Of a DNA stretch of 64,000 nt, positions 41,581 to 61,279 are shown piece by piece. The notes beneath the pieces were generated by a model that saw only the letters and a list, made by a program, of their open reading frames with translations, made no database searches and was not told the DNA's origin. Position 1 is the first letter of the stretch. Each line of letters starts with the position of its first letter. Source of the stretch: Streptococcus porcinus (GTDB lineage: Bacteria > Bacillota > Bacilli > Lactobacillales > Streptococcaceae); assembly GCF_901542335.1 (NCBI RefSeq), contig NZ_LR594036.1, positions 1,550,001 to 1,614,000 of the forward strand, in the 5' to 3' direction. The translations under genes and the position numbers were made by a program.

Positions 41581-41582
41581 TA

Positions 41583-41915: not shown

Positions 41916-41951
41916 ATTCTATGATATAGATTGTAGGACCGCATTAAAGGG
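41916..41951 (-). promoter_or_regulatory. Element-specific promoter A (virB3-virB4 operon)
   Basis: On the minus strand the box CCCTTTAATGC (41941-41951), 19 bases, then TAGAAT (41916-41921). It is one of four with identical box and spacing. The start codon of the first gene is 31 bases on. Confidence 0.7.
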
Positions 41952-41966
41952 TAAGTTGACATAAAA

Positions 41967-41989
41967 AAGAGTCCCCTAAAGGGACTCTT
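41967..41989 (-). terminator. Terminator after the BRCT gene
   Basis: AAGAGTCCC (41967-41975) pairs with GGGACTCTT (41981-41989); T-run on the minus strand. The stem overlaps the last codons of the BRCT gene and lies just in front of promoter A. Confidence 0.85.
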
Positions 41990-42254
41990 GAAAAAATGTA
42001 AAGAAGTCTTCTTCACCAATAAAAGTAATGTTCTGACCACTATTGATTAACATTTCTGCTTTTTCATATTTTTTTGAGTAGTGATCTAATTCAAAAAGTG
42101 TCAATTGTCTGTGGCCAATTATTAATACATCTGTCTGAGAAGAAACATAGTTTTGATAGGTTCCACCTTTCACTTTAATGAATTCAATAACTTCTGACCT
42201 TTCTAAGGGTCTGAGGCTCCCAGTTATTGCCACTACTTTTCCTTGAAAATCCAT
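41976..42254 (-). CDS. Single BRCT-domain protein
   Basis: A 92-residue protein that is almost exactly one BRCT domain: FQGKVVAITGSLRPLERSEVIEFIKVKGGTY (with the GS/T turn and glycine pair), VSSQTDVLIIG and KYEKAEML, then I-x-F-I-x-E-x-x-F. BRCT domains bind phosphopeptides or DNA ends and occur in NAD ligases. As a lone protein in a transfer operon, directly behind the VirB6-like gene, its partner is unknown. The short hairpin overlaps its stop. Confidence 0.82.
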   Translation of the reverse strand: MDFQGKVVAITGSLRPLERSEVIEFIKVKGGTYQNYVSSQTDVLIIGHRQLTLFELDHYSKKYEKAEMLINSGQNITFIGEEDFFTFFQESL

Positions 42255-42263
42255 GATAATGAC

Positions 42264-44312
42264 CTACTCTTCCTCATCAATTTCCACTCCTTTTACACTA
42301 CTTGGTTGTTGCATTCTTTGAGCAGCCTGTTGACTTTGTTGTTGCATGTAATTCATTTGTTGTAAGGAACGCTTAATTTCAGAACCACTTGTAGACTGAT
42401 GAGATTGTTTCTGTTCGATTTTTGGTGCTTTTGGCGCTGTAGTATCCACTGAGTTACTTGTAATCTCTGAAGGGTCGCTAACACCCCCCGAAAGGAAAAA
42501 GTCTTCTCCATAATTATTATGACTCGGATTAAGTATAAACTCTCCACCAGTTAAACCAAAGTTTTCTGACTCCCAGCCAGGCTCAGGTACTGCAGCATCA
42601 TTTTTCAAAGCATTATAGGTCGAGCTATGAGCATCTTGTGCTTTCTGATCTAATGAATCCATTGCACCGCCGACTTTATCTCCAGCTTTATTACCCATAA
42701 GTGTCGCAAGATCAACAGCATTTGATACCCCACCTTTTACAGTATTGCCAAAGCCTTGATCTTTAATAGAGTCTGAGATGCCTTTTAATCCACCAGCAGT
42801 ATTCGCAAAACTATTAGCAACATGTTTACCAGCACTTGCAATAGCTCCTGGGGCTTGTGCAGCTAATGATGTTCCTCCTGTCGCAAGAGCCAAAGCCCCA
42901 GAGCCAAGAGCTCCAGCTCCTGTCGCAAAAGCATTTCCCATCATCATAGCACCTATCAATTGTTGTGCAGTCTCGTTATGACCAGTTGAAACCCCAAGCC
43001 AACGTTCAATCATAGTTACACCTTGCATTGCAGATAAAAATAAAGCAATATAGACAACACATGCAGCAATACATTGTTCCCACATATTGAGACCATCAAA
43101 GAAGCCACCAGAAAGTTTTGAAATACCTGTTACAGATAAGGTTGGGAGATCCCTACAAATTTCCAAAGTAATTCGCATAATGACGATTTCAAAGAAAATA
43201 CCTGCAAGACCTCCTCCTATTGTTCGCAATAATTCCTTGTATTTTTTTGTGTTGAGAGAACTATACCCTTGGATGGGAGATATAAGAGATTCAATAAAAA
43301 TATCAAAAACCGATTTGACAAACTTAATTGACATGACTATGAGTAATGAAATTAAGATAAGATATTGAGCTATCATTCCGATCCAATTAACCTTATAGCG
43401 AAGATAAACAGGTTCAAAGGCATTTAGCCCACCGACTACTCGATGAGTATTTATTGTTTCAACACCATCCTGATTTGTATTTAGTTTATGAAGGAAAAGT
43501 CCTTTCGTACCTTCCTTTTTCTTTTCCAAATCTTTTAATAACTGTTCATTAGATACTCCATACATTGCAGAAAAATCTATTTTAGTCGCAAAGTTTGTTG
43601 TATCTCTTTTTTTCGTATCATCCGTTATATTATTGACTGCAGTAGAACCTTCTTTTAATGGTTTAATAAAACCAAAACTATCCAACGGGAATAACTCTTT
43701 ATTAAAGTCATTGTCCATTAATACTTTGACATCAACCACATTATTTTTCATTGGTTGTATTGCTAAGGAGGAATAATTTTCTTTTGAGTCACCAGTTGAC
43801 ATTGTCTGAATTGATTGGGCATCTTGAGCGACTGTTTGAGAAATAGTCGTTAGGGCCAGAGGCAAAACAGCGGTCACAAGAGTTACTAATAAAAAATTAG
43901 TGATGACATGTTTATATTTTACTGGTTTTGAAAATACCCCCGTAATAGCACTAGCTACTAATATGAGCGTAAAAAGAGTTGTTCCCAAAACTTGAAATCC
44001 AAAAAATAATTTTCCAAAAAGAGTTGATTGATCTCCTAGATAGCCAAATAACCCAAATATCTTAAACATATTATTAAAGACATGCTCCAAACTTACACAG
44101 ATTAGGTATAAGGCCTTAACGATACCTCCTACAAGCTGCATGAGGTAAGCTAAAAATGCCGGAGTTGGTTCAAGATAGTTTCCCCAATATAAATAAAAAT
44201 CGGCTAGCTTTTTTCCGTTATCTCCGGTTATATTTCCATTTGTAGCGCCATTAAGATCCCAAAAATCTTTTGTGATACTTTTGACAACATCAGAATATGT
44301 ATTAAATTCCAA
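42264..44312 (-). CDS. VirB6/TrbL-like transfer channel membrane protein
   Basis: A 682-residue polytopic protein. Several hydrophobic helices lie between residues about 60 and 470, including a long one (TLILVASAITGVFSKP) and NYKVNWIGMIAQYLILISLLIVMSI. An Ala/Gly-rich region follows (about 470-560), then a polar tail rich in Gln. This layout is that of the VirB6-like mobilome membrane proteins (CD1107/EF1877 type). It forms the inner membrane part of the channel. First gene of the operon with the BRCT gene; promoter at 44342-44377. Confidence 0.78.
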   Translation of the reverse strand: MEFNTYSDVVKSITKDFWDLNGATNGNITGDNGKKLADFYLYWGNYLEPTPAFLAYLMQLVGGIVKALYLICVSLEHVFNNMFKIFGLFGYLGDQSTLFGKLFFGFQVLGTTLFTLILVASAITGVFSKPVKYKHVITNFLLVTLVTAVLPLALTTISQTVAQDAQSIQTMSTGDSKENYSSLAIQPMKNNVVDVKVLMDNDFNKELFPLDSFGFIKPLKEGSTAVNNITDDTKKRDTTNFATKIDFSAMYGVSNEQLLKDLEKKKEGTKGLFLHKLNTNQDGVETINTHRVVGGLNAFEPVYLRYKVNWIGMIAQYLILISLLIVMSIKFVKSVFDIFIESLISPIQGYSSLNTKKYKELLRTIGGGLAGIFFEIVIMRITLEICRDLPTLSVTGISKLSGGFFDGLNMWEQCIAACVVYIALFLSAMQGVTMIERWLGVSTGHNETAQQLIGAMMMGNAFATGAGALGSGALALATGGTSLAAQAPGAIASAGKHVANSFANTAGGLKGISDSIKDQGFGNTVKGGVSNAVDLATLMGNKAGDKVGGAMDSLDQKAQDAHSSTYNALKNDAAVPEPGWESENFGLTGGEFILNPSHNNYGEDFFLSGGVSDPSEITSNSVDTTAPKAPKIEQKQSHQSTSGSEIKRSLQQMNYMQQQSQQAAQRMQQPSSVKGVEIDEEE

Positions 44313-44341: not shown

Positions 44342-44377
44342 ACTATAAGGGATAATTTGAATAGGTGCATTAAAGGG
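44342..44377 (-). promoter_or_regulatory. Element-specific promoter B (virB6-BRCT operon)
   Basis: On the minus strand CCCTTTAATGC (44367-44377), 19 bases, TATAGT (44342-44347). Same arrangement as promoters A, C and D. Confidence 0.7.
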
Positions 44378-44411: not shown

Positions 44412-44888
44412 TTATTCTGATTTCCCAATAAAATTATAATATCCATCAGATGAATAGCCCGTTTCAAATTCCAAAATTTGAATCTTTTTACCACCTTCAG
44501 TTAATATTACGCAATACATTTGATCACCAACTTTCCCCCATATATTATCTTTTTGATAACCAACGTTGATAAAGAAGTGTTCTTTTCCCTTAGCTTTATC
44601 TTCATATATTGAAAGATATTTTTTGGGGACCTTTTTGTCAGGAACTATTTCATAATAAACCTTTTCGTCCCTATTAGAGTTTGAGACAGTTTTTTCAGAT
44701 TTATTAAAAGTTAAAGTATAAGTTCCTTCATCAAATGGATTATCATATCCTGAATGATTAGAAGTTCCGATATATTCTTTTTTTAATTCTGTTTTTTCAA
44801 CGTTTTCTGGAGTTTTTTGACCACAAGCTACTAAGAAGATACTGAGCACTGATATAATAGTTATCCCTAATATTTTTTTGAATTTCAT
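44412..44888 (-). CDS. Small lipoprotein of unknown function
   Basis: A 158-residue lipoprotein. The signal peptide ends in SIFLVACGQ with the lipidated cysteine near residue 22. The mature part is a beta-rich polar domain (EYIGTSNHSGYDNPFDEGTYTLTFNKSEKT, VILTEGGKKIQILEFETG) with no recognised family. It has its own strong promoter (44913-44941) and terminator, separate from the transfer operons. Surface lipoproteins of conjugative elements can act in exclusion; that is only a possibility here. Confidence 0.75.
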   Translation of the reverse strand: MKFKKILGITIISVLSIFLVACGQKTPENVEKTELKKEYIGTSNHSGYDNPFDEGTYTLTFNKSEKTVSNSNRDEKVYYEIVPDKKVPKKYLSIYEDKAKGKEHFFINVGYQKDNIWGKVGDQMYCVILTEGGKKIQILEFETGYSSDGYYNFIGKSE

Positions 44889-44912
44889 ATGGCTTCTCCT
44901 TTTATTAAGCCT

Positions 44913-44941
44913 ATTATAACAAATAACAGTTTTAAAAGCAA
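44913..44941 (-). promoter_or_regulatory. Promoter of the lipoprotein gene
   Basis: On the minus strand TTGCTT (44936-44941), 17 bases, TATAAT (44913-44918) with a TG before it. The palindrome at 44941-44974 abuts the -35. Confidence 0.75.
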
Positions 44942-44974
44942 TACATAAACATGTTTATATACATGTTTATGTAT
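44941..44974. repeat. Perfect 14-base inverted repeat containing two ACATGTTTATGT copies
   Basis: ATACATAAACATGT and its exact inverse ACATGTTTATGTAT are separated by six bases (TTATAT). Each arm holds the 12-base motif also found near parA. It lies between the virD4 stop and the lipoprotein promoter. It is a candidate ParB/operator site that may control the lipoprotein gene. Confidence 0.7.
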
Positions 44975-44979
44975 TTACT

Positions 44980-47874
44980 CTAAATCACATCATCTACAAA
45001 AAGATCCTCATCATAATCTATTAAACTATCATAGGGGTTCAAAGTAGCATTCACAGTAGCTTTTATGACTTCTTCTGGAGAATCAAAGGGAGCTGCAGTC
45101 TTTAATTGATTAGGTTTCATACGTACTGCCAATTTTGGTCGACCAGAACTTGTAGCTATCTTACTTGTTAGTCGTCTTCGCCAATCAATAATATTATCAA
45201 ATGTACTTTTTGCTTCCACGGCAATATCTTGTAAATCAAGATTTCGGTGTGGACTGTCAACTGGAATATCCGCAAGTGTCATACTATGGTCAAATTCTTC
45301 TTGTAAGAACATATATCGATAGGGAAGACTTGTCTTCTCATGAAGGAATATAGGGTCTGTTGTGATTTTATGGCCAGATAGGTCTCTTCCTTTTACCCCT
45401 CTTAGAATAACAGCCTCACCTTCTTGAAGTTTTCCTAATTGTGTTGGGGTCAGTAATTCTTGACGTTTACCCTCAAATGAAACATTTGGATTGGCTTCAT
45501 CAAGTATATTACCAGATTTTCGGCGTTTCGTAATCGTTCTAGTGCCCAAGTCCCCACTAATACTCTTATTTGTTTCAGGTGACGTCGACTTAATATAAAC
45601 TTTTAAGGAACAGTTATCTTTAATTGTCGCACTTGTATTTTTCCCATACTTTTCGGTTAACTGTTCTAAGTTTTGAATCCAAAGACAATATAAAATGTTT
45701 TGACCCAAACCTATTGAAATCTTAGTATCCATATGAGGAACCTCAGGAATATTAGTAAACTCATCCAAAACATGCAGAATTCTATTGACACATTTTCGTC
45801 CATTCGACAAAGCCAATTCATAATTAGCATTAAAGAGTTGATCCAAAAACAGGGAAATCAAAGCATTATACTCTGTTCGGTTTGGTGGTGTTACCAGGTA
45901 AATAATTTTGGGATTATCTGAATAGATCATTTCAATGTCGGATTCTTGTAATAAACTAGTCTGAGGTTTATCAATTATTTGAATATCAACATAATCTAAT
46001 ATTGCTTTATTTGTGTACTGATCAAGAATTATCATATCATTATTTTTTTTATAAATTTTCTTCGCCTGAAGAGTGTATTTAACTCCACTTAATGCAAAGT
46101 TAGCATTATTCGGATGATTAAAATCAATGATAACCGTAAATTCATTTGGTAACTTAGGTTCAATAACATAAGTCAAATACCCTTCTACATCAATTAAAGC
46201 CGTTGCTTCTTTAACATGAGTGATTTTTTTTGGTGTCTTACCCCACTTTCTTTCACTAAATATACTTACCTTAGCGGTTCTGTGAGCAAAATCATTTTGT
46301 AGCTGAACATGACTATTTGAACGAAATTTGATTGATAATCGGCGTGGAAAACCAACTGATTCTAAATCAATTGAATTTTTAGATGTTAATTTAGCGATAT
46401 TGTCTTGTAAGAACAGATTAATACCTGTCATCATAGAAGAATAGACATTCCCTTTAGTTTCTTCTGAAGCAAAATCAGAGGCCCTAAAATTGATATCTGC
46501 CATTTCCCTAAATTTTGAAAATTGTTCTTGATTAATTTTTCGTAAATTATCAAAATAAACAGTAAGCTTAGATTTAACTTTAATTCTATCATCTTTTTCA
46601 GGGGCTTCGACAACCTCGCCTAACTCATCCACAAAAACTTCTTCAGAACCTAAATCTGTTAAGAATTTAGCAATATTTCTCACGGTAACTGTATCCCAAG
46701 CATCTTCTTCACCATTTTGAAAAGCTTCATTTGCACGGTCTACTAAAGCCATTGCAATGGCATTAAAAAGAGAAATCGAGCTATTCTCAAAATAAATGGC
46801 AGTTCCATTACCTTGTCCAGGTTTTGTTTTTCGATAGATAGCTTCAGATACTGCATTTATTCGAGTTTGAGTCTTTTCATAGTAGCCACGTCTAGCAGAA
46901 TCTATTGCTAGTGCAAGTGGATCGTAGGACATGGACCAATCCATATTTTGAAAAGATAGTACTTCTACGTCCATTCCTCTTTTTCGCATAGTCTTGTAAG
47001 AAGATTGGTAATGTTCTCCTTTGGGATCACCAATAATCATTGAAGGTTGATTTTCAGCCCGACTATTAATGTCTATGGTCTCAGTGATAAACCCTTCGCC
47101 TTTACCAGAACGGGTCATACCAATACCTAATGTGTTAGTAGCAGCATCTTCAATATAATAATATCCTGATGGAGTTGATTGCATTCCTAACACTTTTTGA
47201 GCATTTGTGACAAGATGACTGTATTTCCTATTTTGCCACAAAATCTGTGTTTCCAGAGTGAAGCCTACTAAATTAGATTTTGTCTCATGTAAAACAGGAA
47301 TTCCACCATCGCCTGGAAACACTTTTTGTTTGTTAGCAACCTTTTTATATTGCTGGTGAATTTCTTTCACAGTCGCAAAACGATCATCACCTTCTTCATT
47401 AAAATTATAATTCCTATATTGCTCGAAGTTTACCCATGCTGAACGCCAAGCAATAAACAATCCAATGAAGAAGATTGGATAAGCAAATATAGGAGCAATA
47501 CTAAATACATGGTAGTTAAAAAGATTTTTTAACAATAAACTCTCAAAAGGAAATGATATCAAACTTTGCGACGTAATAGTTAAGTAGCAATAATTAATAG
47601 CAGCTCTCAAAATAGTGACCAGATAGTTTGTCAGAGCAAATGCAATCAAGCTAAATAATAATCCCATTACCGTAAAACTTTTATAGGTTTTGAAATAGAA
47701 TATAGGCTCTGCCTCTTTTTCAAAACGAATTCGACCTCTAGATACCCATGGCAATAAATGAATGAGCCTTATCAATATATTTGATAAAATTAGGAAGATT
47801 ATTGAGCAAAGTTTTTTTAGTAAATTCAATAACACCTTAAAGTAGTCATTATACTTATGCTGTGATCTCTTCAT
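44980..47874 (-). CDS. VirD4/TraG-type coupling protein
   Basis: A 964-residue membrane ATPase that links the relaxosome to the channel. Membrane helices at about 20-40, 68-90 and 125-145 precede the ATPase domain with Walker A LGIGMTRSGKGEGF (residues 250-262) and Walker B RILHVLDEFTNIP. Large middle insertion (about 430-640) and a C-terminal QNLEQLTEKYGKN region. It overlaps the 87-residue gene upstream by four bases and is the last gene of that operon. Confidence 0.9.
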   Translation of the reverse strand: MKRSQHKYNDYFKVLLNLLKKLCSIIFLILSNILIRLIHLLPWVSRGRIRFEKEAEPIFYFKTYKSFTVMGLLFSLIAFALTNYLVTILRAAINYCYLTITSQSLISFPFESLLLKNLFNYHVFSIAPIFAYPIFFIGLFIAWRSAWVNFEQYRNYNFNEEGDDRFATVKEIHQQYKKVANKQKVFPGDGGIPVLHETKSNLVGFTLETQILWQNRKYSHLVTNAQKVLGMQSTPSGYYYIEDAATNTLGIGMTRSGKGEGFITETIDINSRAENQPSMIIGDPKGEHYQSSYKTMRKRGMDVEVLSFQNMDWSMSYDPLALAIDSARRGYYEKTQTRINAVSEAIYRKTKPGQGNGTAIYFENSSISLFNAIAMALVDRANEAFQNGEEDAWDTVTVRNIAKFLTDLGSEEVFVDELGEVVEAPEKDDRIKVKSKLTVYFDNLRKINQEQFSKFREMADINFRASDFASEETKGNVYSSMMTGINLFLQDNIAKLTSKNSIDLESVGFPRRLSIKFRSNSHVQLQNDFAHRTAKVSIFSERKWGKTPKKITHVKEATALIDVEGYLTYVIEPKLPNEFTVIIDFNHPNNANFALSGVKYTLQAKKIYKKNNDMIILDQYTNKAILDYVDIQIIDKPQTSLLQESDIEMIYSDNPKIIYLVTPPNRTEYNALISLFLDQLFNANYELALSNGRKCVNRILHVLDEFTNIPEVPHMDTKISIGLGQNILYCLWIQNLEQLTEKYGKNTSATIKDNCSLKVYIKSTSPETNKSISGDLGTRTITKRRKSGNILDEANPNVSFEGKRQELLTPTQLGKLQEGEAVILRGVKGRDLSGHKITTDPIFLHEKTSLPYRYMFLQEEFDHSMTLADIPVDSPHRNLDLQDIAVEAKSTFDNIIDWRRRLTSKIATSSGRPKLAVRMKPNQLKTAAPFDSPEEVIKATVNATLNPYDSLIDYDEDLFVDDVI

Positions 47875-48134
47875 ATTCCCTCTCCACCTCCATTCTTTTT
47901 TATATCTATTCCTTTTAACGATACTTTTTGAGCAAAAAAGCGTGAATACAAGAATATCTGAAACTGTAGTTGTACCGAGAGGTCACTATAGTAAGAAAGA
48001 TAAATCGATAGTTGATTATCTATATCTCTTACAATTGGTGAATAGTTATTTTTGTAATGTAATCTTTGCATTATATAATTTTCCATTTGAAAAGATTCTG
48101 CAATTAATTCATCTGGATCAATAGTTTTCTTCAT
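47871..48134 (-). CDS. Small unknown protein upstream of virD4
   Basis: An 87-residue soluble protein, mostly helical (YIMQRLHYKNNYSPIVRDIDNQL, QFQIFLYSRFFAQKVSLKG), with no recognised domain. It overlaps virD4 by four bases and is first in that operon, behind promoter C. Probably a small transfer factor; function unknown. Confidence 0.65.
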   Translation of the reverse strand: MKKTIDPDELIAESFQMENYIMQRLHYKNNYSPIVRDIDNQLSIYLSYYSDLSVQLQFQIFLYSRFFAQKVSLKGIDIKKNGGGEGI

Positions 48135-48159: not shown

Positions 48160-48195
48160 AGTTTAATGGAAAAATAACATCAAGGCATTAAAGGG
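48160..48195 (-). promoter_or_regulatory. Element-specific promoter C (virD4 operon)
   Basis: On the minus strand CCCTTTAATGC (48185-48195), 19 bases, TAAACT (48160-48165). The -10 is weaker than in A, B and D. Confidence 0.6.
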
Positions 48196-48401: not shown

Positions 48402-48827
48402 TTAAAATGGTGACTCTGCATCAACTGGAGAAAAAGCTTCCTCTACATTCTGATACTGCTTCTGATTATTATCTTGTTTACCTTGTCTTTTTTGACTGGC
48501 TGCTTTAGTTTCAAGAAATATTATACCTTTGTATAAATTAGGAGCTAAGTATTGGAAGATTTTTCTGTTCCCCTGTTTATCAACATATGTTTTTTGTACA
48601 ATTTCACCTTCTACAAGAATTGGTGAGCCATTAGATAAGCTTTCTGAGACTAATTCAGCTTGTTTTCCATATACTTGTACATGAAAGAAACTGGGAATCG
48701 GTTTTTTATTATCGTCTAATTGACCAGAATCACATACAAATTCAAACCGACAGCTATTCTTACCGTTAGTTGTCTTTTTAATTTCAACATCTGATGCAAC
48801 ACGTCCATAGGCTATAAATGTTTGCAT
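48402..48827 (-). CDS. ssb: Single-stranded DNA-binding protein
   Basis: A 141-residue SSB. The OB fold spans about residues 1-105: GRVASDVEIKKTTNGKNSCRFEFVC, FFHVQVYGKQAELV, PILVEGEIVQKTYVD. The tail is polar and ends ESPF, similar to but not identical with the protein-binding tip of chromosomal SSB (DDDIPF). It protects single-stranded element DNA during transfer and establishment. It is at the end of the long transfer operon. Confidence 0.9.
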   Translation of the reverse strand: MQTFIAYGRVASDVEIKKTTNGKNSCRFEFVCDSGQLDDNKKPIPSFFHVQVYGKQAELVSESLSNGSPILVEGEIVQKTYVDKQGNRKIFQYLAPNLYKGIIFLETKAASQKRQGKQDNNQKQYQNVEEAFSPVDAESPF

Positions 48828-48844
48828 ACTTCCCTCCTACTTTA

Positions 48845-49114
48845 TTATTTTTGCTTAATTGCACTAATACGAATAATTTGAATAATAATGATGATATAAA
48901 CAATATCTTTAATATTGTGATTTAACATATCATTGACATTTGAAGCATTCACTAGATGAAAGACTGACATCCCAAATAAGAAAGTTGTGTAAAATAAGAA
49001 CAGCGATAAGAAGAAATTAAGGACATTTCTAAGCTTTTCACTTTCTGTGACAATTTCCCAACCCATAGCTGTAATCAACATTATAGCCAGAACAACAGAA
49101 TTAAATATAATCAT
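48845..49114 (-). CDS. Small membrane protein of the transfer operon
   Basis: An 89-residue protein with three hydrophobic helices (VVLAIMLITAMGW, VLNFFLSLFLFYTTFLFGMSVF, DIVYIIIIIQIIRI). No family recognised. It lies 17 bases before ssb and 14 after the 225-residue gene. Confidence 0.65.
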   Translation of the reverse strand: MIIFNSVVLAIMLITAMGWEIVTESEKLRNVLNFFLSLFLFYTTFLFGMSVFHLVNASNVNDMLNHNIKDIVYIIIIIQIIRISAIKQK

Positions 49115-49128
49115 ATTCGTCCCCTTTC

Positions 49129-49806: not shown

Positions 49807-49831
49807 TATACTCCTTTCTAACAGAAGAATG

Positions 49832-49858
49832 GCATATCTTCAATTGGCGAAGATATGC
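49832..49858 (-). other. Hairpin between the 908-residue gene and the next gene
   Basis: GCATATCTTC (49832-49841) pairs with GAAGATATGC (49849-49858). The T-run after it is weak, so it may be a processing hairpin or partial terminator rather than a full one. Confidence 0.5.
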
Positions 49859-49869
49859 TATGTGTGTCT

Positions 49870-52644: not shown

Positions 52645-52646
52645 TT

Positions 52647-52672
52647 AAAAAGGCTATAAGAATAGCCTTTTT
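52647..52672 (-). terminator. Terminator after the antigen I/II-like gene
   Basis: AAAAAGGCTA (52647-52656) pairs with TAGCCTTTTT (52663-52672); T-run on the minus strand. Confidence 0.8.
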
Positions 52673-52679
52673 CAGCTTA

Positions 52680-55322
52680 TTATTTTTCAGTAACTTTTTT
52701 GATTTTTCCACTTCCAAATAGAGAAACTACAGACACGATAGCCATACCAATAGCTCCTAACCAACCAGTTGATTGTTCCCCTGTTGTTGGTAATACGCTT
52801 GCTTGAGCAATAGGTGTTTTTTCGTCAACTTTTGGACTCGCTGATGTCTTAGGTGTTTCTGGTACCTTAGGATTTTCAACTGTATTGTGAACCCAATTTC
52901 CTGCATAGCCATTGCCAAAATCAATTTGATAAACAATATTATCGACACTTTCACCATCTTTAACTGTATCTTTAATCTTAGCAGGCATTGTGAAGAAAAT
53001 ACTATCACCAACTTTAACGTATTTGTCAAAGAATCCTTGATAATCGTCAGCTACCCAAATAACAAACTCGTCATTATCTTCAATTGGTACCCTAGATTGT
53101 TTAACTAAGTCTTTAATAGCTTGTGGTGCATCAGCAAGATTTTTAATAACATAAGGTGTTAACCCATTAACCGTTTCGCCTTTGCTGTCTTTAATCGTTG
53201 TTCCTTCAACGTTTAAGATTTCCTTAGCTTCGTCATAGTTGTCAATATAACCAAAGCCTTTAGAAACCGCTACAGCTCCTGCCATAATGCCTTTATATTG
53301 ATCCAAGTCCCACTTACCAACATAGACAATATCTTGACCTGCTTTAACAGTTTTATTATTAATGTCATTGTCTTCTGTATCTAAGACTTGTTTTGTAGGT
53401 TGGATAATACTATTACCATGATTTGGGGCGTTTGGATCAGGAGTCCCAGGAGTATAGATAGTTACAGTGTTTGATGTCATATCATATAGGTTTCCTGCTT
53501 TAAAATTATAAGCATTGATATAAGTCGCATTATCATTTTGAGGATTACCATAAATGATTGGATCTACAACGTTAAAAGCTTTTGTTCTGTCAGCATTTAA
53601 TTTAGCCACTTCACTATCTTTCAACGTGAAAGTAATAGTGTTTGAAGCTTCATCAAAAGCAACATTAAAAGCAGAGTTTTGAGTTACTGTCTTTTCAACA
53701 TTTACCAAGTAACCTGAAGGTAAGTGGTCTGTAATGACATAAGAACCATTTGCGAGTAATGGACGTCCAGCTTCTAAAGCATTTGTTTTAAGTGTGTAAG
53801 GAGCTTCTGAACCTTTCGGAACCATTAAACCGTCAACATTTTGACCACTATCATTAGAAACAGTTTTCGAAATACCTGTTTTAAGGTCAATTTGATAAGT
53901 TTTAACTGCTACTGTTTTCTTAGTAGGAGCAACTGGTTGAGGAAGATAGGTAAATGTTTCTGTTTCAACTTTCGCACTTGTTCCAAACAAATCAAATTCG
54001 ATATAATTTGAAATTGTATCTTTTGACGTTAAAACATATTTATCAGATGTATGTGTGTAAGAGAATTTAGAAGATGTTCCTACCGCTAGATAAGTTCCTA
54101 CAGGAGCATTTTGATAGCCATTAACCAATACCAGTTCTTTACTTACTAAACCTGAACCATCATCTATTAATTGTGAGCCATCAGGATTGACATAATTAAG
54201 AGTATTACCACCGAATGTAATTGTTGATTTTTGACCATTATCAACATCACCGATTACAGAAGCAATCGTTAACTTAATTGGATTCCCTTCATCATCTAAG
54301 AAAGTACCATCAAATCCAAAATCTTTAAAATTCCAGTAATCCCAAGCGATACCGTTGTCTTCTGTTTTACCAATTAGAGCAAATTGTTCATCATCTGCCA
54401 ACTTAGCATCATCAGTGAATACAAGCTTAGCATTAATATTTATTCCATCAGCTGTGGTTCCCCAATTTTTAATGAAAATTGAATCGCCTTTAGTAATCCC
54501 ATCAATTCTATACAAGAATTTAGAAGTTGTTCCACCAATACCCCATTGACCTGATTTATTAGGATCATATGGAGAAACTGTTACACCTGAAGATGATGTA
54601 ATGCTAGTATTAGCATTCCAACCTAGTGATTGCACATCATGAGAACCTTCAGTAGTTGCCACAACTTTAATATTTTTGTAGAAGTCTAATCCTGTTGCTT
54701 GTGAGTCAAACGAACCTGTTACATAAATTCCTGATGTTGAGTCAGAAGCAATATTATTAGCTTTTAAAGCATCCTCTTTAGCTTTAGTTTCTGCATTTTT
54801 TGCATCAACTTCTGCTTTCTTTGCTTCATAAGCTTTTTGCTCTGCAATTGCTTGAGCTGTTGTGTCTTGAATGATTCTAGTTTCAGTAGCATAGTTGTTT
54901 TCTGCTGTTTGAGCATCAGGAACTTTTTCTGTGCCGCCATCAGTGATAGTTACACCTGCACTTGTTGCTGAGTTTTCAGCTTGAGCTAACTCAGTAGGCT
55001 TTTCAATAGTTGTGGTCGTTGTTGTTGAACCAGTTCCTGCTTCAGCAACGGCTTCTGTGTTACCTTGTGTTGCTTCAGGTTGTACTGGAACTAAATTCGT
55101 TGCAGGGTTAGGATTTGTGGCTACAGCTGTAGAATCTGGTTGTGATGGCGTTGTTACTTCATCAGCATTTACACTATGCCCACCTGTTACAAATGGCAAT
55201 ACTGCGATTGTTCCAGCAACTACAGCGCCCTTTAACATATCTTTTGACCCTATACGAGTTCCACCAATAGTTGTTACGTTTTTTGCTTTACGAAAACCGA
55301 ATGTTTCTTTTTTAAATGTCAT
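52680..55322 (-). CDS. Antigen I/II-like LPXTG surface adhesin
   Basis: An 880-residue cell-wall protein. A long YSIRK-like signal (TFGFRKAKNVTTIGGTRIG, then hydrophobic) ends near residue 53. An alanine-rich coiled coil follows (about 140-190: ETRIIQDTTAQAIAEQKAYEAKKAEVDAKN). Then a V-domain/GbpC-like lectin fold (about 190-460: SGIYVTGSFDSQATGLDFYKNIKVV). Two C-terminal pilin-like repeats follow, as in C1-C3 of AgI/II, with a proline hinge. The sorting signal LPTTG with a hydrophobic helix and KKVTEK tail lies at the end. Compared with full antigen I/II (about 1500 residues) it is short. It would bind host or bacterial surfaces, helping mating contact. Confidence 0.88.
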   Translation of the reverse strand: MTFKKETFGFRKAKNVTTIGGTRIGSKDMLKGAVVAGTIAVLPFVTGGHSVNADEVTTPSQPDSTAVATNPNPATNLVPVQPEATQGNTEAVAEAGTGSTTTTTTIEKPTELAQAENSATSAGVTITDGGTEKVPDAQTAENNYATETRIIQDTTAQAIAEQKAYEAKKAEVDAKNAETKAKEDALKANNIASDSTSGIYVTGSFDSQATGLDFYKNIKVVATTEGSHDVQSLGWNANTSITSSSGVTVSPYDPNKSGQWGIGGTTSKFLYRIDGITKGDSIFIKNWGTTADGININAKLVFTDDAKLADDEQFALIGKTEDNGIAWDYWNFKDFGFDGTFLDDEGNPIKLTIASVIGDVDNGQKSTITFGGNTLNYVNPDGSQLIDDGSGLVSKELVLVNGYQNAPVGTYLAVGTSSKFSYTHTSDKYVLTSKDTISNYIEFDLFGTSAKVETETFTYLPQPVAPTKKTVAVKTYQIDLKTGISKTVSNDSGQNVDGLMVPKGSEAPYTLKTNALEAGRPLLANGSYVITDHLPSGYLVNVEKTVTQNSAFNVAFDEASNTITFTLKDSEVAKLNADRTKAFNVVDPIIYGNPQNDNATYINAYNFKAGNLYDMTSNTVTIYTPGTPDPNAPNHGNSIIQPTKQVLDTEDNDINNKTVKAGQDIVYVGKWDLDQYKGIMAGAVAVSKGFGYIDNYDEAKEILNVEGTTIKDSKGETVNGLTPYVIKNLADAPQAIKDLVKQSRVPIEDNDEFVIWVADDYQGFFDKYVKVGDSIFFTMPAKIKDTVKDGESVDNIVYQIDFGNGYAGNWVHNTVENPKVPETPKTSASPKVDEKTPIAQASVLPTTGEQSTGWLGAIGMAIVSVVSLFGSGKIKKVTEK

Positions 55323-55342
55323 GTTTTTTCTCCATTTTTTAA

Positions 55343-56095
55343 TTAATAAGTTCTTTCAGAATTAGCTGGTTTAATAAATACCATACCAACTAGTGCGACA
55401 AATACCCCTAAAAAGCTAAAGACTTTATCTATAGGGCTTGTTCCAGTATTAGGTAATGTTTTCTTTTTGCCATCTTTTTCATTAATTGTGACAGTACCAT
55501 CTGGATTAGTTTTTCCACCAATCTCTTCAGCAGTTTTAGTCTCATAGCTTCCATCACTATTCTTGATAATAACTTTACTATCTTGTGTTGATACGATTTC
55601 AGCACCTGTGTCCGTTACAATTGGTTTTTCAGGTGTAGGAATCACAACTGGATCAGTTGTCGTTCCTGAGTTTCCTGATCCTGAACTAGGATTTGTAGTT
55701 GTTCCTGAATTTTCTGATCCTGATCCTGGATTTGTAGTTGTTCCTGGGTCTACCGTTCCTGAACTTGGATCTGTACTTGTTCCAGGATCTGTAGTTGTTC
55801 CAGTGTCTTCTAATCCTGAACTAGGATCTGCTGTTGTCCCAGGATCTACTACTACTGACCCTGGATCTGTAGTTGTTCCTGGATCTAGAATACTACTTCC
55901 AGTATCTGTGTTCGGTTCTGGTTTATCTACTCCTGTTTCTAGATTTGTAGTTGTTCCTGGATCTGGCGAAACAACTGGCCCCGATGGAATTGTTGAATCA
56001 CCTGGTAATGAAATATCTTCAGCTTGTACAATACTATTTGCCATCAACAAACTTGCTGAAGTTAAGCTAAATATAAGTAACTTTTTATTTAACAT
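55343..56095 (-). CDS. PGTT-repeat LPXTG cell-wall protein
   Basis: A 250-residue secreted protein: signal peptide (IFSLTSASLLMANSIVQA), then about 110 residues of imperfect Pro-Gly-Thr-Thr / Pro-Ser-Ser-Gly repeats (about 55-150), a short domain (IVSTQDSKVIIKNSDGSYETKTAEEIGGKTN) and the sorting signal LPNTG, a hydrophobic helix and a basic end. It looks like a wall-spanning stalk. The DNA repeats also make a long meaningless frame on the other strand. It lies just before the AgI/II gene with 20 bases between, likely one transcript. Confidence 0.85.
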   Translation of the reverse strand: MLNKKLLIFSLTSASLLMANSIVQAEDISLPGDSTIPSGPVVSPDPGTTTNLETGVDKPEPNTDTGSSILDPGTTTDPGSVVVDPGTTADPSSGLEDTGTTTDPGTSTDPSSGTVDPGTTTNPGSGSENSGTTTNPSSGSGNSGTTTDPVVIPTPEKPIVTDTGAEIVSTQDSKVIIKNSDGSYETKTAEEIGGKTNPDGTVTINEKDGKKKTLPNTGTSPIDKVFSFLGVFVALVGMVFIKPANSERTY

Positions 56096-56107
56096 TGCAT
56101 TCTCCTT

Positions 56108-57199
56108 TTAATTTTTTGTTTTTATATAAGATTCTTGTTTGGGTTCATTTGTGAGCACAAATCCAAAACGATTATTTTTATCTGGTTTTAAATTAAAGCG
56201 CAAACGAACTTGTTTTGCTGAACCTTTTTCATCAGCAACCGATAAAACATAAGAGACTTTATAATCACCTGAAGAAGTTTTATCTGATATATTTTCTAGT
56301 AAAACAAACTGTAAGTTACCTTTTTGAGGGATAGTATATTTTGCATCTCCATCATCAAGAAAATTAGCAAGTTTCTGCTTATCTCCAGAATAATAATTGG
56401 GTAAAAAATATCTGCTGAAAACATCTATTTGATGTTCCATTTTTTGGTTATCTTTCAAAATTTGTACTTCATTATGAAGATAAGTAACTTTTTTATTGAT
56501 GTCATTTAATCTACCAACTAACGAGAAAGTTAAAAATAATGATACGATCGTAAAACTTAATATAAATGCTAAAAATAACCATGTTATCAACGGAGTTTGA
56601 TTAAGTGCCTTTGGATCTGCCCTACTATTGTTTTGTGTCTTTACAGATGATATTTGCTGATAATCCTTTTTTTCTTGTGCTATTTTCACCAAGTCACTTT
56701 CACTTGGAAATACTGGCATAGCACTTTCTGATAGCTGTAAGCTTCGTTTATAAGTTGGAAATACCGTTACAACAAAATATTCTCTTTTATTGTTATAAGA
56801 ATAATCAGCAAACTGTTTGTCTAATGTAATAGCTATAAAAAATGGTTCTAACAAATTGGTATAATTTGCCGGAACAACATATGGAGAAGCAAAGAGTTCC
56901 CCCTCTGAACTGGCTCCTTTACCTTTATTATCCAAATGACACAAGCTAACTTTCTTAAATGTAAAATAGCCGTATGATTGTGAGAGAGCCGAGAATAACA
57001 AATCAGCTTGATAAAAAGATAAATAAGGAAGAGTAGCCTCAATGGTTTGATGACTTTCTCTTAATAAATGATCATCAATTGTTTCTATAAGTTCAAATAA
57101 TGATGGATCTTTCATAGGTGATATATCATCTTGCCATTCAACTTCTAAAAATAGTTCATCTGTAATGAGACACCTTGGATTTTTCTTTAATAAAATCAT
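56108..57199 (-). CDS. VirB8/TcpC-like transfer protein
   Basis: A 363-residue protein. The N-terminal about 200 residues are cytoplasmic, one membrane helix lies at about 207-232 (TWLFLAFILSFTIVSLFLTFSLVG), and the outer 130 residues have a coiled stretch then a beta-rich domain (YKVSYVLSVADEKGSAKQVRLRFNLKPDKNNRFGF) that looks like the NTF2-like fold of VirB8/TcpC. Placed between the VirB2-like and LPXTG genes. Assignment is by topology, not by clear sequence identity. Confidence 0.6.
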   Translation of the reverse strand: MILLKKNPRCLITDELFLEVEWQDDISPMKDPSLFELIETIDDHLLRESHQTIEATLPYLSFYQADLLFSALSQSYGYFTFKKVSLCHLDNKGKGASSEGELFASPYVVPANYTNLLEPFFIAITLDKQFADYSYNNKREYFVVTVFPTYKRSLQLSESAMPVFPSESDLVKIAQEKKDYQQISSVKTQNNSRADPKALNQTPLITWLFLAFILSFTIVSLFLTFSLVGRLNDINKKVTYLHNEVQILKDNQKMEHQIDVFSRYFLPNYYSGDKQKLANFLDDGDAKYTIPQKGNLQFVLLENISDKTSSGDYKVSYVLSVADEKGSAKQVRLRFNLKPDKNNRFGFVLTNEPKQESYIKTKN

Positions 57200-57211
57200 A
57201 GTGTCTTATCT

Positions 57212-57562
57212 TTATCCTCCTTTAACAAAATTGAAAAACCATTCAACAATACTTGGTCCTGCTGAAACAGCAAATATTGCTATAGCAATTGCTAACCAAT
57301 GAGATTTAATTTTTGCTTTTAATTCACGTCCTCCAAAACCATAGACAAGCCCCGTAACTACAGCAGCAAGTCCAAAACAGACAATTCCGATTCCTTGGAC
57401 TTTTGAAATACCTTGATTAGCTAAATTTTCTGTCTTTGCGAATGGATCATCTGCAAAAACGGCCTGTGCTTGCAACGTTGTTAAAAATAGAGAAAGAGCT
57501 AGTAAATAGTGTTTCGATTTACTCCTCACAAATAATAATTGTTTTGCCAAATATTTTTTCAT
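57212..57562 (-). CDS. VirB2/TrbC-like pilin-like membrane protein
   Basis: A 116-residue protein with a cleavable-looking signal (LLALSLFLTTLQAQAVFA), a short loop and two hydrophobic helices (GIVCFGLAAVVTGLVYGFGG and WLAIAIAIFAVSAGPSIVEWFF). That is the layout of TrbC/VirB2 prepilins and of the small membrane proteins of Gram-positive systems. Located after the Clp-like gene with a good ribosome site (AAAGGAGG). Confidence 0.7.
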   Translation of the reverse strand: MKKYLAKQLLFVRSKSKHYLLALSLFLTTLQAQAVFADDPFAKTENLANQGISKVQGIGIVCFGLAAVVTGLVYGFGGRELKAKIKSHWLAIAIAIFAVSAGPSIVEWFFNFVKGG

Positions 57563-57623
57563 TTTGTTCCTCCTTTGAACTGATCTGACTATTTAAGTGT
57601 AAGAGATAACACACAAATAAACT

Positions 57624-59468
57624 TTAAGGGGTAAGCTCACTTCTAAAATTGGTTTTTTCTTCTAATTGAAAAACTAATTCTCTCCTATCAATGCGATGAT
57701 TTTCGTCAGGTGCTTTCCCTTCAACTGTAATTTTTAATAACTGTGGCTCATGATTCAATTTTAAGGATAGTAATTTGAAGGATGTTGGGGCAATAATTTT
57801 CTTCTTAATTAAGCGTGTCAATGGCCTTGCCCCCTTTTTGACATTAGTTCCGTTAGCAATCAAATAGTCAATCACCTCAGGGTCATAGCTAAGCTCAATA
57901 TCTTGTTGATTTAACTTACTCTCAAACTCTGCTAACTTTGTTACTGCTATTTCTCCGATTGTTTCTCTATCTAAAAGATTAAAGACAACTTGATTTTCAA
58001 TTCGATTTAGAAATTCTGGTCTAAATTCTGTCTGAAGTTCAATATCCATACTAGCTTCAAATTGTTGTCTATCTCTATTTGTTAAGTCTTTAATATTTCC
58101 TCTCATTTCCGCTTTATTGATTATCTTTTGAGCACCAATATTTGTCGTCATTATGACAATGACATTTTTAAAGCTAATCTTTCTTCCAGTAGCATCTGTG
58201 AGATGACCTGCATCCAAGACTTGTAACAAGAGGTCATGTACCTCTTGTACTCCCTTTTCAATTTCGTCTATTAAGAGGATAGAATACGGCTTTCTTTTCA
58301 CACCCTCAGTTAAAGTCCCTTTCGATTTCGATTTTCGATCCCCAATCATACGACTGACATCTTCTTTTTGCGAATACTCTGACATATCAAATCTAAGTAA
58401 GGCCTCAGGATCATCAAATAAGACTGTCGCAAGGGTATTTGCTAATTCAGTTTTTCCCACACCAGTTGGCCCAAGAAAGAGAAATGAACTGATTGGCTTA
58501 TCTTCATCCTGTAACCCTGCTTTTGATATAGCTATTGCGTCAACAACTGCATCAATTGCCTGGTCTTGTCCTTTAATTTTTTCTTTCAAACGACTTCTTA
58601 GCTCAGATAAACGAAAGCTATCATCTTTTAAAATAGTGGAAATAGGAATGCCAGTTTTTAACTTCAGTATTTCAGCAATTTCTACTTCAGTGACAATCTT
58701 TTTCCCCTTACTTGAACAATAAGCTGCTGCTTCATCTAATAGATCAAATGCTTTATCTGGCAAGAATCGATCAGGAACATATCGTACTGAGAGTTGAATA
58801 GCTTGCTCAACAGCAATATCAGAAATAGTCACCTGATGAAACGTTTCATAGACAGACTTAGCTTGTGAAATGATTTGAAAGGCTTCTTTAGCACTTGGCT
58901 CATTAATCATAATCGGTTGTGTTCGACGTTCAAGAGCCCTATCTTCCTCGATAAATTCATGGTATTCATCTAAAGTTGTTGCTCCAATAATTTTTATTTT
59001 GCCTCGAGCTAAAACCGACTTAATAATATTTCCTGCATCTAATGATTGTCCATCTTTACCAGCACCCATAATGGTGTGAAACTCATCTATAAATAATAGA
59101 TTTTCATCACTAGCAGCAACCATCTCCTCGATGATTCCCTTAAACTTAGTAATGAAATTACCACCCTCTTCATTATTCATTAAACTAGATAATTCAAGAG
59201 ATCTAACTGTCATACCTTTTAGATGGGCAGGTACTTCATCACGTATGATTGCTAAAGCTATCCCTTCAACTATTGCCGTCTTACCTACTCCAGGCTCACC
59301 GACTAAAACTGGATTATTCTTAGACCTACGTTTCAAAGACCGAATAACCATTTGTATTTCTTTATCTCTACCATATACATGAAAGTCTTCTGGTCTTAAA
59401 GAAACATCAGCAGAAAGATTATCCGTATAGCGATCTAACATAGGGGTATTGCTATTTTCTTTAGTCAC
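57624..59468 (-). CDS. Clp/Hsp100-type AAA+ unfoldase without N-domain
   Basis: A 614-residue ATPase with two AAA+ modules. D1: Walker A GEPGVGKTAIVEGIA (residues 57-64 core), Walker B LLFIDEFHTIMGAG. D2: Walker A GPTGVGKTELANTLA near residue 345, Walker B ILLIDEIEKG. The usual N-terminal Clp domain (about 150 residues) and the long ClpB middle coiled coil are absent, and no clear IGF/LGF loop for ClpP docking is visible, so it is probably not a protease partner. It may remodel transfer or replication complexes. It overlaps topB by eight bases. Confidence 0.85.
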   Translation of the reverse strand: MTKENSNTPMLDRYTDNLSADVSLRPEDFHVYGRDKEIQMVIRSLKRRSKNNPVLVGEPGVGKTAIVEGIALAIIRDEVPAHLKGMTVRSLELSSLMNNEEGGNFITKFKGIIEEMVAASDENLLFIDEFHTIMGAGKDGQSLDAGNIIKSVLARGKIKIIGATTLDEYHEFIEEDRALERRTQPIMINEPSAKEAFQIISQAKSVYETFHQVTISDIAVEQAIQLSVRYVPDRFLPDKAFDLLDEAAAYCSSKGKKIVTEVEIAEILKLKTGIPISTILKDDSFRLSELRSRLKEKIKGQDQAIDAVVDAIAISKAGLQDEDKPISSFLFLGPTGVGKTELANTLATVLFDDPEALLRFDMSEYSQKEDVSRMIGDRKSKSKGTLTEGVKRKPYSILLIDEIEKGVQEVHDLLLQVLDAGHLTDATGRKISFKNVIVIMTTNIGAQKIINKAEMRGNIKDLTNRDRQQFEASMDIELQTEFRPEFLNRIENQVVFNLLDRETIGEIAVTKLAEFESKLNQQDIELSYDPEVIDYLIANGTNVKKGARPLTRLIKKKIIAPTSFKLLSLKLNHEPQLLKITVEGKAPDENHRIDRRELVFQLEEKTNFRSELTP

Positions 59469-61215
59469 TTATTTCTCCATTCTTTTTTAAATTCATTTGG
59501 GATTGAAGCTTCTCCTTGATGGCATCCACAAATTCTTTGGGATTAATTTTCCCTTCACCAATCTGTGTTAGAAACAACTCCCACCCTGCTGTTGTTTCAG
59601 GGTTGGAAAAATCATTATCATATAAAAAATCTATTAACAAATAAGCTTTAGAAGTTGGCGTAAATTGTGAAGTCTTTTTATCTTTGATAACATATTCCCT
59701 TTTTTGAATTATATTTAACATTTCTGCTCTAGTAGCCGATGTTCCAAGTCCATATTTTGGTAAAATCGTTCCAATAAGCTGATCTTCAGTTATACGTTTA
59801 GGAGCTTGAGTTTGCCCTTCTTCAATCGTGATTCTAGAAGTTACCTCATCATCAACTTTGTAATCTGGTAAAATGATATCTTTCTTTAAGGGTTGATTTG
59901 ATAATTCAGTCCAACCTTTTTTTATCATTTGTCTACCAGCAGCTTTAAAATCTAAACCGTTATTATTCAAAGTAACAGTTGTTAAATGGTAACTACAATC
60001 TTCTGCAAACATGAGAAGGGTCCTCCTCGTAATTGCTTCATAGATAAGACGTTCATCTGAAGATAAACTCAGGAGATTTGGAATAGTCTCAGTTGGTACT
60101 AAAGCATAGTGACTTGACTTAGCTACTATTTCTCCATCAACATAATTGTCTCTAGGCTCTAAATAATAGGGAGAAAAGTGGCAGTTTATCGTATGTTGAT
60201 AACGTGCTAAATTATCTTTTAAGTAATTAAATTCATGTTCAGTTATGTAGTTACAGTCCGTCCGTGGATAGGTGACATATTTTTTTAAATATAATCCCTC
60301 GATAAGGTTTAAAGTTTTTTCAGCTGAAAATTTCCATCGACTAGAAGCAAACGACTGGATTTGAGCTAAATTAAATAATTTTGGTGACGATCTTCGTTTG
60401 ATTGCTTTTTCTACGCTTGTCACGATTGAGATTCTATGAAATGCTCTAGATTTTTTTAAAGCTTCTTCACTATTTTGAATCTTGTCATTATTTGAAAAAA
60501 TAATATTCGTATCTTGATCTTCTAATTTAAATTTATAAAATAGTGACGGTTCAAAATTTGAAATAGCAATATCGTTTTCACAAATTAATCTGACAATACT
60601 TGTCTGAACTCGTCCCACTGATAACGTATTTCCTTTTTTTCTTGGTAATTTTCCTTGTCTTTGTAACTCTAATGTTGTATAGGGTGATAGATTCATTCCT
60701 ACAAGCCAATCACTTTGAGCACGTGCTTCAGCTTCTAAATAGTAATCATAGGTTTCTTGAGGATCCCTTAAGTTTTTAAAAGCTTGTTCTAAACCTTTCT
60801 TGCTGAGAGACGATACCCATAACCGATTTGTTATTTTATTTTTTGCATTAGGAATATGCGAAAGTATGGAATAAGCAATACGTTCTCCTTCACGATCTGA
60901 ATCAGTACCAATAACGATACGATCACACTTAATAACTTCCTTATAAATACGATTGAAATATTCTTTTGATTTTTTATCTTCTTTCAAATGTTGTTTAAAA
61001 GATACATCTAAAAGCGGTAATCTATCTAAGCTCCAATTATCCTGAGGCGCTTCATATTCGAATAAATGACCTTCAGAAGCCACAATATGAACTGAACCTT
61101 CGAAATAATCTGTATGCTCAACAATAAAGACTTTATCCTTACACACGTACTGACCAAGAGCTTCAGCGTAGTCTTGAGCTTGTTGATCTTTTTCTGCTAA
61201 AATAACTGTTAACAT
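59461..61215 (-). CDS. topB: DNA topoisomerase III-type enzyme
   Basis: A 584-residue type IA topoisomerase. The TOPRIM domain starts LTVILAEKDQQAQDYAEALG and carries IGTDSDREGERIAYSIL; the active-site motif is YVTYPRTDCNYI and NTLSVGRVQTSIVRLI is typical of TopB. Conjugative elements often carry a TopB for handling transferred single strands. The ATG at 61215 is preceded by AAGGAG; a longer frame from 61254 is less likely. First gene of the long operon from promoter D. Confidence 0.92.
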   Translation of the reverse strand: MLTVILAEKDQQAQDYAEALGQYVCKDKVFIVEHTDYFEGSVHIVASEGHLFEYEAPQDNWSLDRLPLLDVSFKQHLKEDKKSKEYFNRIYKEVIKCDRIVIGTDSDREGERIAYSILSHIPNAKNKITNRLWVSSLSKKGLEQAFKNLRDPQETYDYYLEAEARAQSDWLVGMNLSPYTTLELQRQGKLPRKKGNTLSVGRVQTSIVRLICENDIAISNFEPSLFYKFKLEDQDTNIIFSNNDKIQNSEEALKKSRAFHRISIVTSVEKAIKRRSSPKLFNLAQIQSFASSRWKFSAEKTLNLIEGLYLKKYVTYPRTDCNYITEHEFNYLKDNLARYQHTINCHFSPYYLEPRDNYVDGEIVAKSSHYALVPTETIPNLLSLSSDERLIYEAITRRTLLMFAEDCSYHLTTVTLNNNGLDFKAAGRQMIKKGWTELSNQPLKKDIILPDYKVDDEVTSRITIEEGQTQAPKRITEDQLIGTILPKYGLGTSATRAEMLNIIQKREYVIKDKKTSQFTPTSKAYLLIDFLYDNDFSNPETTAGWELFLTQIGEGKINPKEFVDAIKEKLQSQMNLKKNGEISD

Positions 61216-61243
61216 AATATTCTCCTTATTTACTATTGTTAGT

Positions 61244-61279
61244 AGTCTAATCAATAAATTTAATCACTGCATTAAAGGG
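61244..61279 (-). promoter_or_regulatory. Element-specific promoter D (topB operon)
   Basis: On the minus strand CCCTTTAATGC (61269-61279), 19 bases, TAGACT (61244-61249). It drives topB and the genes after it. Confidence 0.7.

What the first reader, a model, noticed from the sequence alone, without database searches (positions are those of the whole stretch)
41916..61279. Four transfer operons share an identical 11-base box at fixed distance from the -10
CCCTTTAATGC occurs on the minus strand at 41941-41951, 44367-44377, 48185-48195 and 61269-61279. In each case exactly 19 bases separate it from a -10-like hexamer (TAGAAT, TATAGT, TAAACT, TAGACT), and each is just upstream of a first gene of a transfer operon. 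No normal -35 is seen. This looks like one promoter class for the whole conjugation regulon, with the box acting as an activator site or unusual -35 element. I found no fifth copy in the arm, and none in front of the transposase, parA or lipoprotein genes.
Basis: seen in the sequence. Interest (0 to 1): 0.82.

Follow-up and report, generated by a model that had tools for sequence, protein, structure and literature searches.

The report
Shared promoter of conjugation operons
A streptococcal jumping element that moves between cells puts the same unusual promoter in front of all seven of its transfer operons; related elements use different letters in that switch but keep the spacing, which points to one element-encoded master activator, and a candidate protein is named.

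Summary
CCCTTTAATGC occurs 4 times in the window (0.04 expected), each N19 from a -10-like hexamer, on the transfer strand. A degenerate form matches 7 places in the 2.16-Mb genome, all operon heads in this TnGBS-type element: the four reported, a fifth in the window (57596-57631, before the pilin gene) and two beyond its end. Of 16 elements examined first (this one included), 14 carry seven such promoters. Box letters are alike within an element and differ between elements (within 0.12, between 0.32 differences per base; 17 elements), while the -10 region does not show this. Two elements of a Lactobacillaceae genus show the N19 layout with other letters. This points to an element-encoded factor co-evolving with its promoters. 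The best candidate is a ~165-aa predicted HTH protein, databased as 'modification methylase Sau96I': present in 35 of 36 genomes with the coupling protein, tracking box divergence best among DNA-binding candidates compared, and kept by ~9-kb mini-elements with one such promoter. Most likely it binds at about -46 to -32, replaces the missing -35 and recruits sigma-A polymerase. No transcription start or binding has been measured; the regulator's identity is inferred.

The parts
41916..41951 (-). Promoter P1: box CCCTTTAATGC (41941-41951), N19, -10 TAGAAT (41916-41921); drives the DUF5592 / VirB4-like / CHAP hydrolase operon
   Evidence: orthologous sites in relatives
44342..44377 (-). Promoter P2: box 44367-44377, N19, -10 TATAGT (44342-44347); drives the 682-aa pLS20_p028-family (VirB6-like) gene and the BRCT ORF
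   Evidence: relatives
48160..48195 (-). Promoter P3: box 48185-48195, N19, -10 TAAACT (48160-48165); drives the 87-aa ORF, coupling protein TraG/VirD4 and probably the 158-aa ORF
   Evidence: 29 of 30 traG loci have the site
57596..57631 (-).
   Evidence: orthologous sites in relatives
61244..61279 (-). Promoter P4: box 61269-61279, N19, -10 TAGACT (61244-61249); drives topoisomerase I (probable ATG at 61215) and the AAA ATPase
   Evidence: relatives
36769..41885 (-). Transfer operon 1 (P1): DUF5592, VirB4-like in two ORFs (215 + 649 aa), 88 aa, CHAP/glucosaminidase hydrolase, 192 aa
   Evidence: operon extent inferred from spacing
41976..44312 (-). Transfer operon 2 (P2): pLS20_p028-family transmembrane protein (682 aa, TTG start), BRCT-domain 92 aa
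   Evidence: operon extent inferred
44412..48134 (-). Transfer operon 3 (P3): 87 aa, TraG/VirD4 coupling protein 964 aa, 158 aa
   Evidence: operon extent inferred
48402..57562 (-). Transfer operon 4b (P4b): TrbC/VirB2 pilin, 363 aa, LPXTG protein, surface proteins, SSB
   Evidence: operon extent inferred
57624..61254 (-). Transfer operon 4 (P4): topoisomerase I, ClpA/ClpB-type AAA ATPase
   Evidence: operon extent inferred
33862..35094 (-). UPF0236 (Mutator-type) DDE transposase; no box promoter in front
35823..36620 (-). ParA-type ATPase gene; no box promoter in front

Best explanation
All transfer operons of this TnGBS-family element are driven by one promoter class. It consists of an element-specific box at about -46 to -32 (often a TGTC-like start plus about 10 variable bases; here CCCTTTAATGC), 19 bp, and a sigma-A-type -10 (TANNNT) with no -35. 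An element-encoded activator binds the box next to sigma region 4 and recruits sigma-A RNA polymerase, so the seven operons switch on together. The best candidate is the ~165-aa HTH protein encoded next to repA (G000:C1:1627306-1627815, minus strand, outside the window), databased as 'modification methylase Sau96I'. Shown here by sequence: the promoter class, its restriction to the element, its conservation, and concerted box change. Inferred: activation, sigma-A use, and that this protein is the box reader.
For: Seven hits in the own genome, all at element operon heads. A 50-bp profile run over 1.79 million positions (both strands, overlapping stretches included) gave 97 distinct hits above 20 bits, 97 on the transfer strand, 96 with RBS plus start; best score in the host part of the window was -11.6. 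With 18-20 bp allowed, 58 of 61 rows had 19 and the other 3 were off-strand. Box differences per base: 0.115 within, 0.317 between 17 elements (117 sites; 0 of 200 label shuffles reach this; 0.259 between after dropping G199, G276, G122), against 0.215 and 0.229 for the -10 block. Distant G199 has TGTCGGTAA boxes at 6 operon heads, same N19. A Ligilactobacillus-type element has 6 TGTCATNAAW sites at the same distance, 0.09 in shuffles. The candidate: in 35 of 36 traG genomes; rank 1 of 36 families for the upstream block (13 elements, r 0.90, partial 0.64); highest of 7 families compared; of 33 families with data the only one, besides a tie and a mix of paralogues that split otherwise, to group G277 with G156, the only two of 17 elements whose boxes lack the leading C, 5 of 7 each. 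Mini-elements keep it with one box promoter. Its model has a C-terminal HTH.
Against: No transcription start, expression or binding datum was available. With 17 elements the candidate ranks 4 of 36 (upstream block) and 3 of 36 (box), behind VirB6-like, pilin and DUF5592 families. Its N-terminal part, not its HTH, correlates best with the box (0.88 against 0.70). In G199 and in both Lactobacillaceae elements it sits beside the relaxase, so a relaxosome role is possible. Foldseek found no convincing fold match. G062 keeps the gene without a site in the 40 kb fetched. The profile itself scores two sites of this element poorly (P5 11.1, P1 under 11), and agreement of boxes within an element is a tendency: here 4 of 7 are identical. 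The -10 block also shows a small within-element excess (0 of 200 shuffles in the full set, 6 of 200 in the reduced set).
Confidence: 0.6

Rival explanations
1. An element-encoded alternative sigma factor reads the box as its own -35 and TANNNT as its -10.
For: Both parts and the 19-bp spacer are conserved; 'TTATCYCT' just 5' of the -10 is strongly conserved in the 41-site profile, more than sigma-A needs.
Against: Pfam scans of the element proteins named no sigma factor (not every ORF was scanned). The -10s fit sigma-A. The box varies between elements and the -10 block hardly does, and the -10 block does not track the candidate (rank 17 of 36), so the two parts seem to be read by different proteins.
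Confidence: 0.13
2. The box is read by another element protein, such as the ribbon-helix-helix type proteins near oriT (families 15 and 18) or next to parA (family 30), not by the candidate.
For: Families 15 and 18 also occur in relatives, family 15 in Lactobacillaceae elements and in mini-elements. Family 30 follows the 11-bp box almost as well (0.62 against 0.66).
Against: Families 15 and 18 follow the box less well (0.18-0.64 against 0.63-0.80) and do not group G277 with G156. Family 30 follows the whole upstream block less well (0.59 against 0.89).
Confidence: 0.15
3. The box is an operator: a repressor covers the -35 region and the promoters are on when it leaves.
For: Position -46 to -32 (read) would also suit a repressor; transfer functions of such elements are usually silent (general knowledge).
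Against: No usable -35 lies under or near the box, so the promoter would be weak without help; the fixed N19 is more typical of an activator touching polymerase (inference).
Confidence: 0.1
4. The box belongs to the terminator hairpins just upstream (RNA element or antiterminator) and not to a promoter.
For: A hairpin, mostly with a T run, lies within 70 bp upstream of 6 of the 7 sites.
Against: P4b lacks the hairpin. Hairpin-to-box distance varies while box-to--10 distance is fixed.
Confidence: 0.02

Closest known systems
AcaCD regulon of IncC plasmids and SGI1 (passages of PMC7826253)
   Same: An activator encoded by a mobile element drives several transfer and replication operons through a shared promoter class; SGI1 carries responsive promoters before its own traN, traGH and repA genes.
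   Different: AcaCD is an FlhDC-family activator in Gammaproteobacteria; the candidate here has no family match and the box changes letters between related elements.
TnGBS family of ICEs (passages of PMC3942029)
   Same: Mutator-type DDE transposase with a conjugation module in streptococci.
   Different: The passages seen describe transposition upstream of host sigma-A promoters, not this internal promoter class.
Bacteriophage T4 MotA-type middle promoters (recalled, no call)
   Same: An activator-bound box replaces the -35 next to a sigma-70 -10.
   Different: Different box, position and protein; no homology tested.

Membership tests
TnGBS-family integrative and conjugative element | Mutator-type (UPF0236/ISLre2-like) DDE transposase | tested here: met
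   PF06782, E 1.6e-26
TnGBS-family integrative and conjugative element | Conjugation module with coupling protein and MOB_P relaxase | tested here: met
   TraG/VirD4; MobL/MobP2 (NCBIfam match below its curated cut-off), but the relaxase frame is split in this copy
TnGBS-family integrative and conjugative element | Plasmid-like replication and partition genes | tested here: met
   ParA-type ATPase; PriCT_1 protein
TnGBS-family integrative and conjugative element | Insertion 15-17 bp upstream of a sigma-A promoter | not tested
   Element ends were not located (one attempt)
Element-encoded master-activator regulon (AcaCD-like in working) | Shared box at several transfer operon heads | tested here: met
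   7 sites in own genome
Element-encoded master-activator regulon (AcaCD-like in working) | Protein that binds the box and activates | not testable with these tools
   Candidate by covariation only
FlhDC/AcaCD protein family | Sequence match of the regulator to a known activator family | tested here: not met
   Pfam, PHROGs and NCBIfam scans of the candidate gave no such family
Alternative sigma factor | Protein with sigma regions 2 and 4 | tested here: inconclusive
   No sigma factor named among scanned element proteins; not every ORF was scanned
Sau96I modification methylase (database name of the candidate) | Cytosine methylase domain | tested here: not met
   Pfam and NCBIfam scans up to E 1 named no methylase domain

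The most novel reading that the evidence does not exclude
The ~165-aa protein founds a new family of conjugation master activators in Gram-positive bacteria. It reads a fast-evolving box and keeps related elements in separate, self-specific regulons. Small TnGBS satellites (candidate activator, repA, MobC-type pair, box promoter, VirB6-like gene, transposase; about 9 kb) use the same switch to join a helper's transfer machine, a Gram-positive counterpart of SGI1 and AcaCD.
Probability: 0.35. Interest if true: 0.85.

Novelty: new variant of a known kind. Interest (0 to 1): 0.72.

Why it matters
How TnGBS-type elements switch on conjugation was not described in the listings and passages seen (searches, of an open-access library only). 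This gives a defined regulon, exact promoter positions and a named candidate activator. About ten natural box types in a fixed frame let box-protein specificity be tested directly, and could explain how several related elements in one cell stay separately controlled.

Tried and rejected
Plasmid megablast gave no match.

Coincidence: rejected. Terminator-linked RNA element: rejected as main reading because P4b lacks the hairpin. Host regulator: unlikely, since elements within one bacterial genus use different boxes.

The Mantel-type ranking is not proof: with distant G199 and two others added, families 8, 22 and 7 (VirB6-like, pilin, DUF5592) outrank the candidate, and its N-terminal part correlates better than the HTH. 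A follow-up on G136 (boxes TCCCTTAACGC at 2 of 2 sites; same recognition helix as G277 in 3 of 3 copies) is weak, because one of its candidates is 93% identical to that of G277 and so not independent.

Patterns for G199 and G492 were written after the repeats had been seen by eye, so the counts are descriptive; the shuffles do not correct for that choice. A first k-mer look at G492 found nothing clear. Two further TGTCAT matches in G492 lie on the other strand without a -10. G612: of 13 rows with a CCCAAAAAA-like word, 2 have the exact CCCAAAAAATA box, a -10 at N19 and a gene start; two variants before the VirB6-like and topoisomerase genes were counted by eye from the printed sequence. pMP1046A of L. 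salivarius: candidate homologue beside mobP2 but no clear set of sites, inconclusive. G030/G031 and G015 have related but irregular boxes. G128 and G162 showed 3 sites each in the stretches fetched. No P6 site was found in G199. P1 of the G206/G122/G128/G115 group fits best with an 18-bp spacer. The 50-bp profile has a fixed spacer, so evidence for 19 bp rests.

Full report
OBSERVATION. CCCTTTAATGC is present four times in the window at the stated places, all on the minus strand; shuffled sequence gives 0.04. Nineteen bases separate each box from TAGAAT, TATAGT, TAAACT and TAGACT. Reading the sequence, no TTGACA-like hexamer stands where a -35 should be. The 11-bp box covers about -42 to -32 if the -10 hexamer is -12 to -7. 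The genus is taken to be Streptococcus because the named homologues of the candidate protein are streptococcal; the genomes themselves are unnamed.

THE REGULON IN THIS GENOME. A degenerate form fitted to the sites seen by then, CCCYTTAAHRY-N19-TANWNT, matches seven places in 2.16 Mb, all minus strand and all inside the element, with no control hit. These are P1 (window 41916-41951), P2 (44342-44377), P3 (48160-48195), P4b (57596-57631), P4 (61244-61279), P5 (genome C1:1615217-1615252) and P6 (C1:1620453-1620488). The operons encode a T4SS module: DUF5592 with a VirB4-like ATPase in two ORFs, a pLS20_p028-family membrane protein, the coupling protein, pilin and surface proteins, topoisomerase with an AAA ATPase, a primase-like protein, and the leader ORF before the mobilisation genes. 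The transposase and parA genes have no such promoter. Hairpins, mostly with T runs, lie within 70 bp upstream of 6 of the 7 sites, so most operons look insulated from the one before.

RELATED ELEMENTS. The exact box with N19 occurs in 2 of 284 same-genus genomes, four times in each; the second, G276, is a close relative. The coupling protein has homologues in 36 of 284 genomes. Fifteen of the 35 others were fetched with flanks; they share most tra proteins, and 14 of 15 show the transposase in the stretches fetched; gene order was listed for five. A scan allowing spacers of 18-20 gave 61 rows, overlapping stretches included: 58 with exactly 19, on the transfer strand, and 3 with 18, all off-strand. 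A fixed-spacing profile then gave 97 distinct hits above 20 bits, 97 on the transfer strand, 96 with RBS and start within 70 nt. The best score in the host part of the window was -11.6; two sites of this element itself score only 11.1 (P5) and under 11 (P1). Fourteen of 16 elements, this one included, have seven sites (P1 of this element was added by its exact sequence, and P1 of G276 comes). The other two, G128 and G162, showed three each; of G162 only one stretch was fetched. P3 has the site in 29 of 30 traG loci; the miss is one locus of G030.

CONCERTED CHANGE OF THE BOX. Boxes agree within an element and differ between elements: mostly CCCTTTAATGC here (4 of 7), CCGCTTAACGC in G269 (6 of 7), CCTCTTAACGC in G256 (4 of 7), CC(C/T)(C/G)TTAGAGC in G195 (5 of 7), CCCATTAA in G280 (6 of 7). 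Over 17 elements and 117 sites the box differs by 0.115 per base within and 0.317 between elements, and 0 of 200 label shuffles reach that gap; dropping G199, G276 and G122 leaves 0.115 and 0.259. The block with the -10 differs by 0.215 within and 0.229 between, a small gap that 0 of 200 shuffles reach in the full set and 6 of 200 in the reduced set. So it is mainly the box that changes in concert. G277 and G156 alone have boxes without the leading C, 5 of 7 in each, against none in the other 15 elements. In G199, whose coupling protein is 58% identical, six operon heads carry TGTCGGTAA, four of them the full TGTCGGTAAATTTT, with N19 and a -10. Outside the genus, the candidate regulator was found in 1 genome among 295 of the order (5 matches, 4 of the own genus) and in 2 of 201 genomes of that genome's family. 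One, G492, has a protein whose identical copy is named from Ligilactobacillus salivarius. Its contig has six sites of TGTCATNAA(A/T), 23 further bases and TANNNT, all on the transfer strand; 200 shuffles gave 0.09 on average. That pattern was noticed by eye first, so the figure is descriptive. The second, G612, has two exact CCCAAAAAATA-N19 sites and two variants.

MECHANISM. Shown by sequence: box, fixed spacer, -10, absence of a -35, restriction to the element, and concerted change. Inferred: an activator sits at about -46 to -32, next to sigma region 4, and recruits sigma-A polymerase. In S. agalactiae 90% of mapped starts have sigma-70 type -35/-10 promoters (passage of PMC4448216), so a -35-less class is unusual. 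The upstream block follows the candidate and the downstream block does not (rank 17 of 36), as expected if the activator reads the first and polymerase the second. The weak points are listed under evidence against.

KNOWN RELATIVES IN KIND. The closest in working is the AcaCD regulon of IncC plasmids and SGI1 (passages of PMC7826253). The mini-elements in G114 and G047 (candidate, repA, MobC-type pair, one box promoter, pLS20_p028-family gene, transposase) recall SGI1, which carries responsive promoters before its own transfer genes. This parallel is an inference.

Noticed in passing
L160:3363-5722 (G000:C1:1615362-1617721): The MobP2-type relaxase reads as two overlapping ORFs (231 and 577 aa) here, while the close relative G276 has one 786-aa frame (L161:652-3012). 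This copy may not transfer on its own. Described only.
   Followed up: partly
L247:1165-10341 and L248 (G114, G047): Mini-TnGBS of about 9 kb with candidate regulator, repA, MobC-type pair, one box promoter, a VirB6-like pLS20_p028-family gene and a transposase; no relaxase or coupling protein matched in the 19.9 kb fetched. Looks like a satellite of full elements.
   Followed up: partly
P3 and other sites in relatives, e.g. L165:1172, L163:15178: Palindrome around GTTATATAAC recurs some 20-50 bp upstream of P3 and at other places in many relatives; possible second regulator site. It was not found in the window or L160.
   Followed up: no
window 38975-41580: The VirB4-like ATPase is encoded as two ORFs (215 + 649 aa); both families are found in all 16 elements compared (families 5 and 6).
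   Followed up: no
window 41976-42254: A stand-alone BRCT-domain protein of 92 aa in the second transfer operon, found in 15 of 16 elements.
   Followed up: no
L269 (pMP1046A of Ligilactobacillus salivarius, 98000-147000): Candidate-regulator homologue (33%) directly before mobP2, with an ISLre2-family transposase nearby; a mobilizable relative on a megaplasmid.
   Followed up: partly
L270-L272 (G136): Three copies of the candidate regulator in one genome, two with a different C-terminal tail.
   Followed up: no
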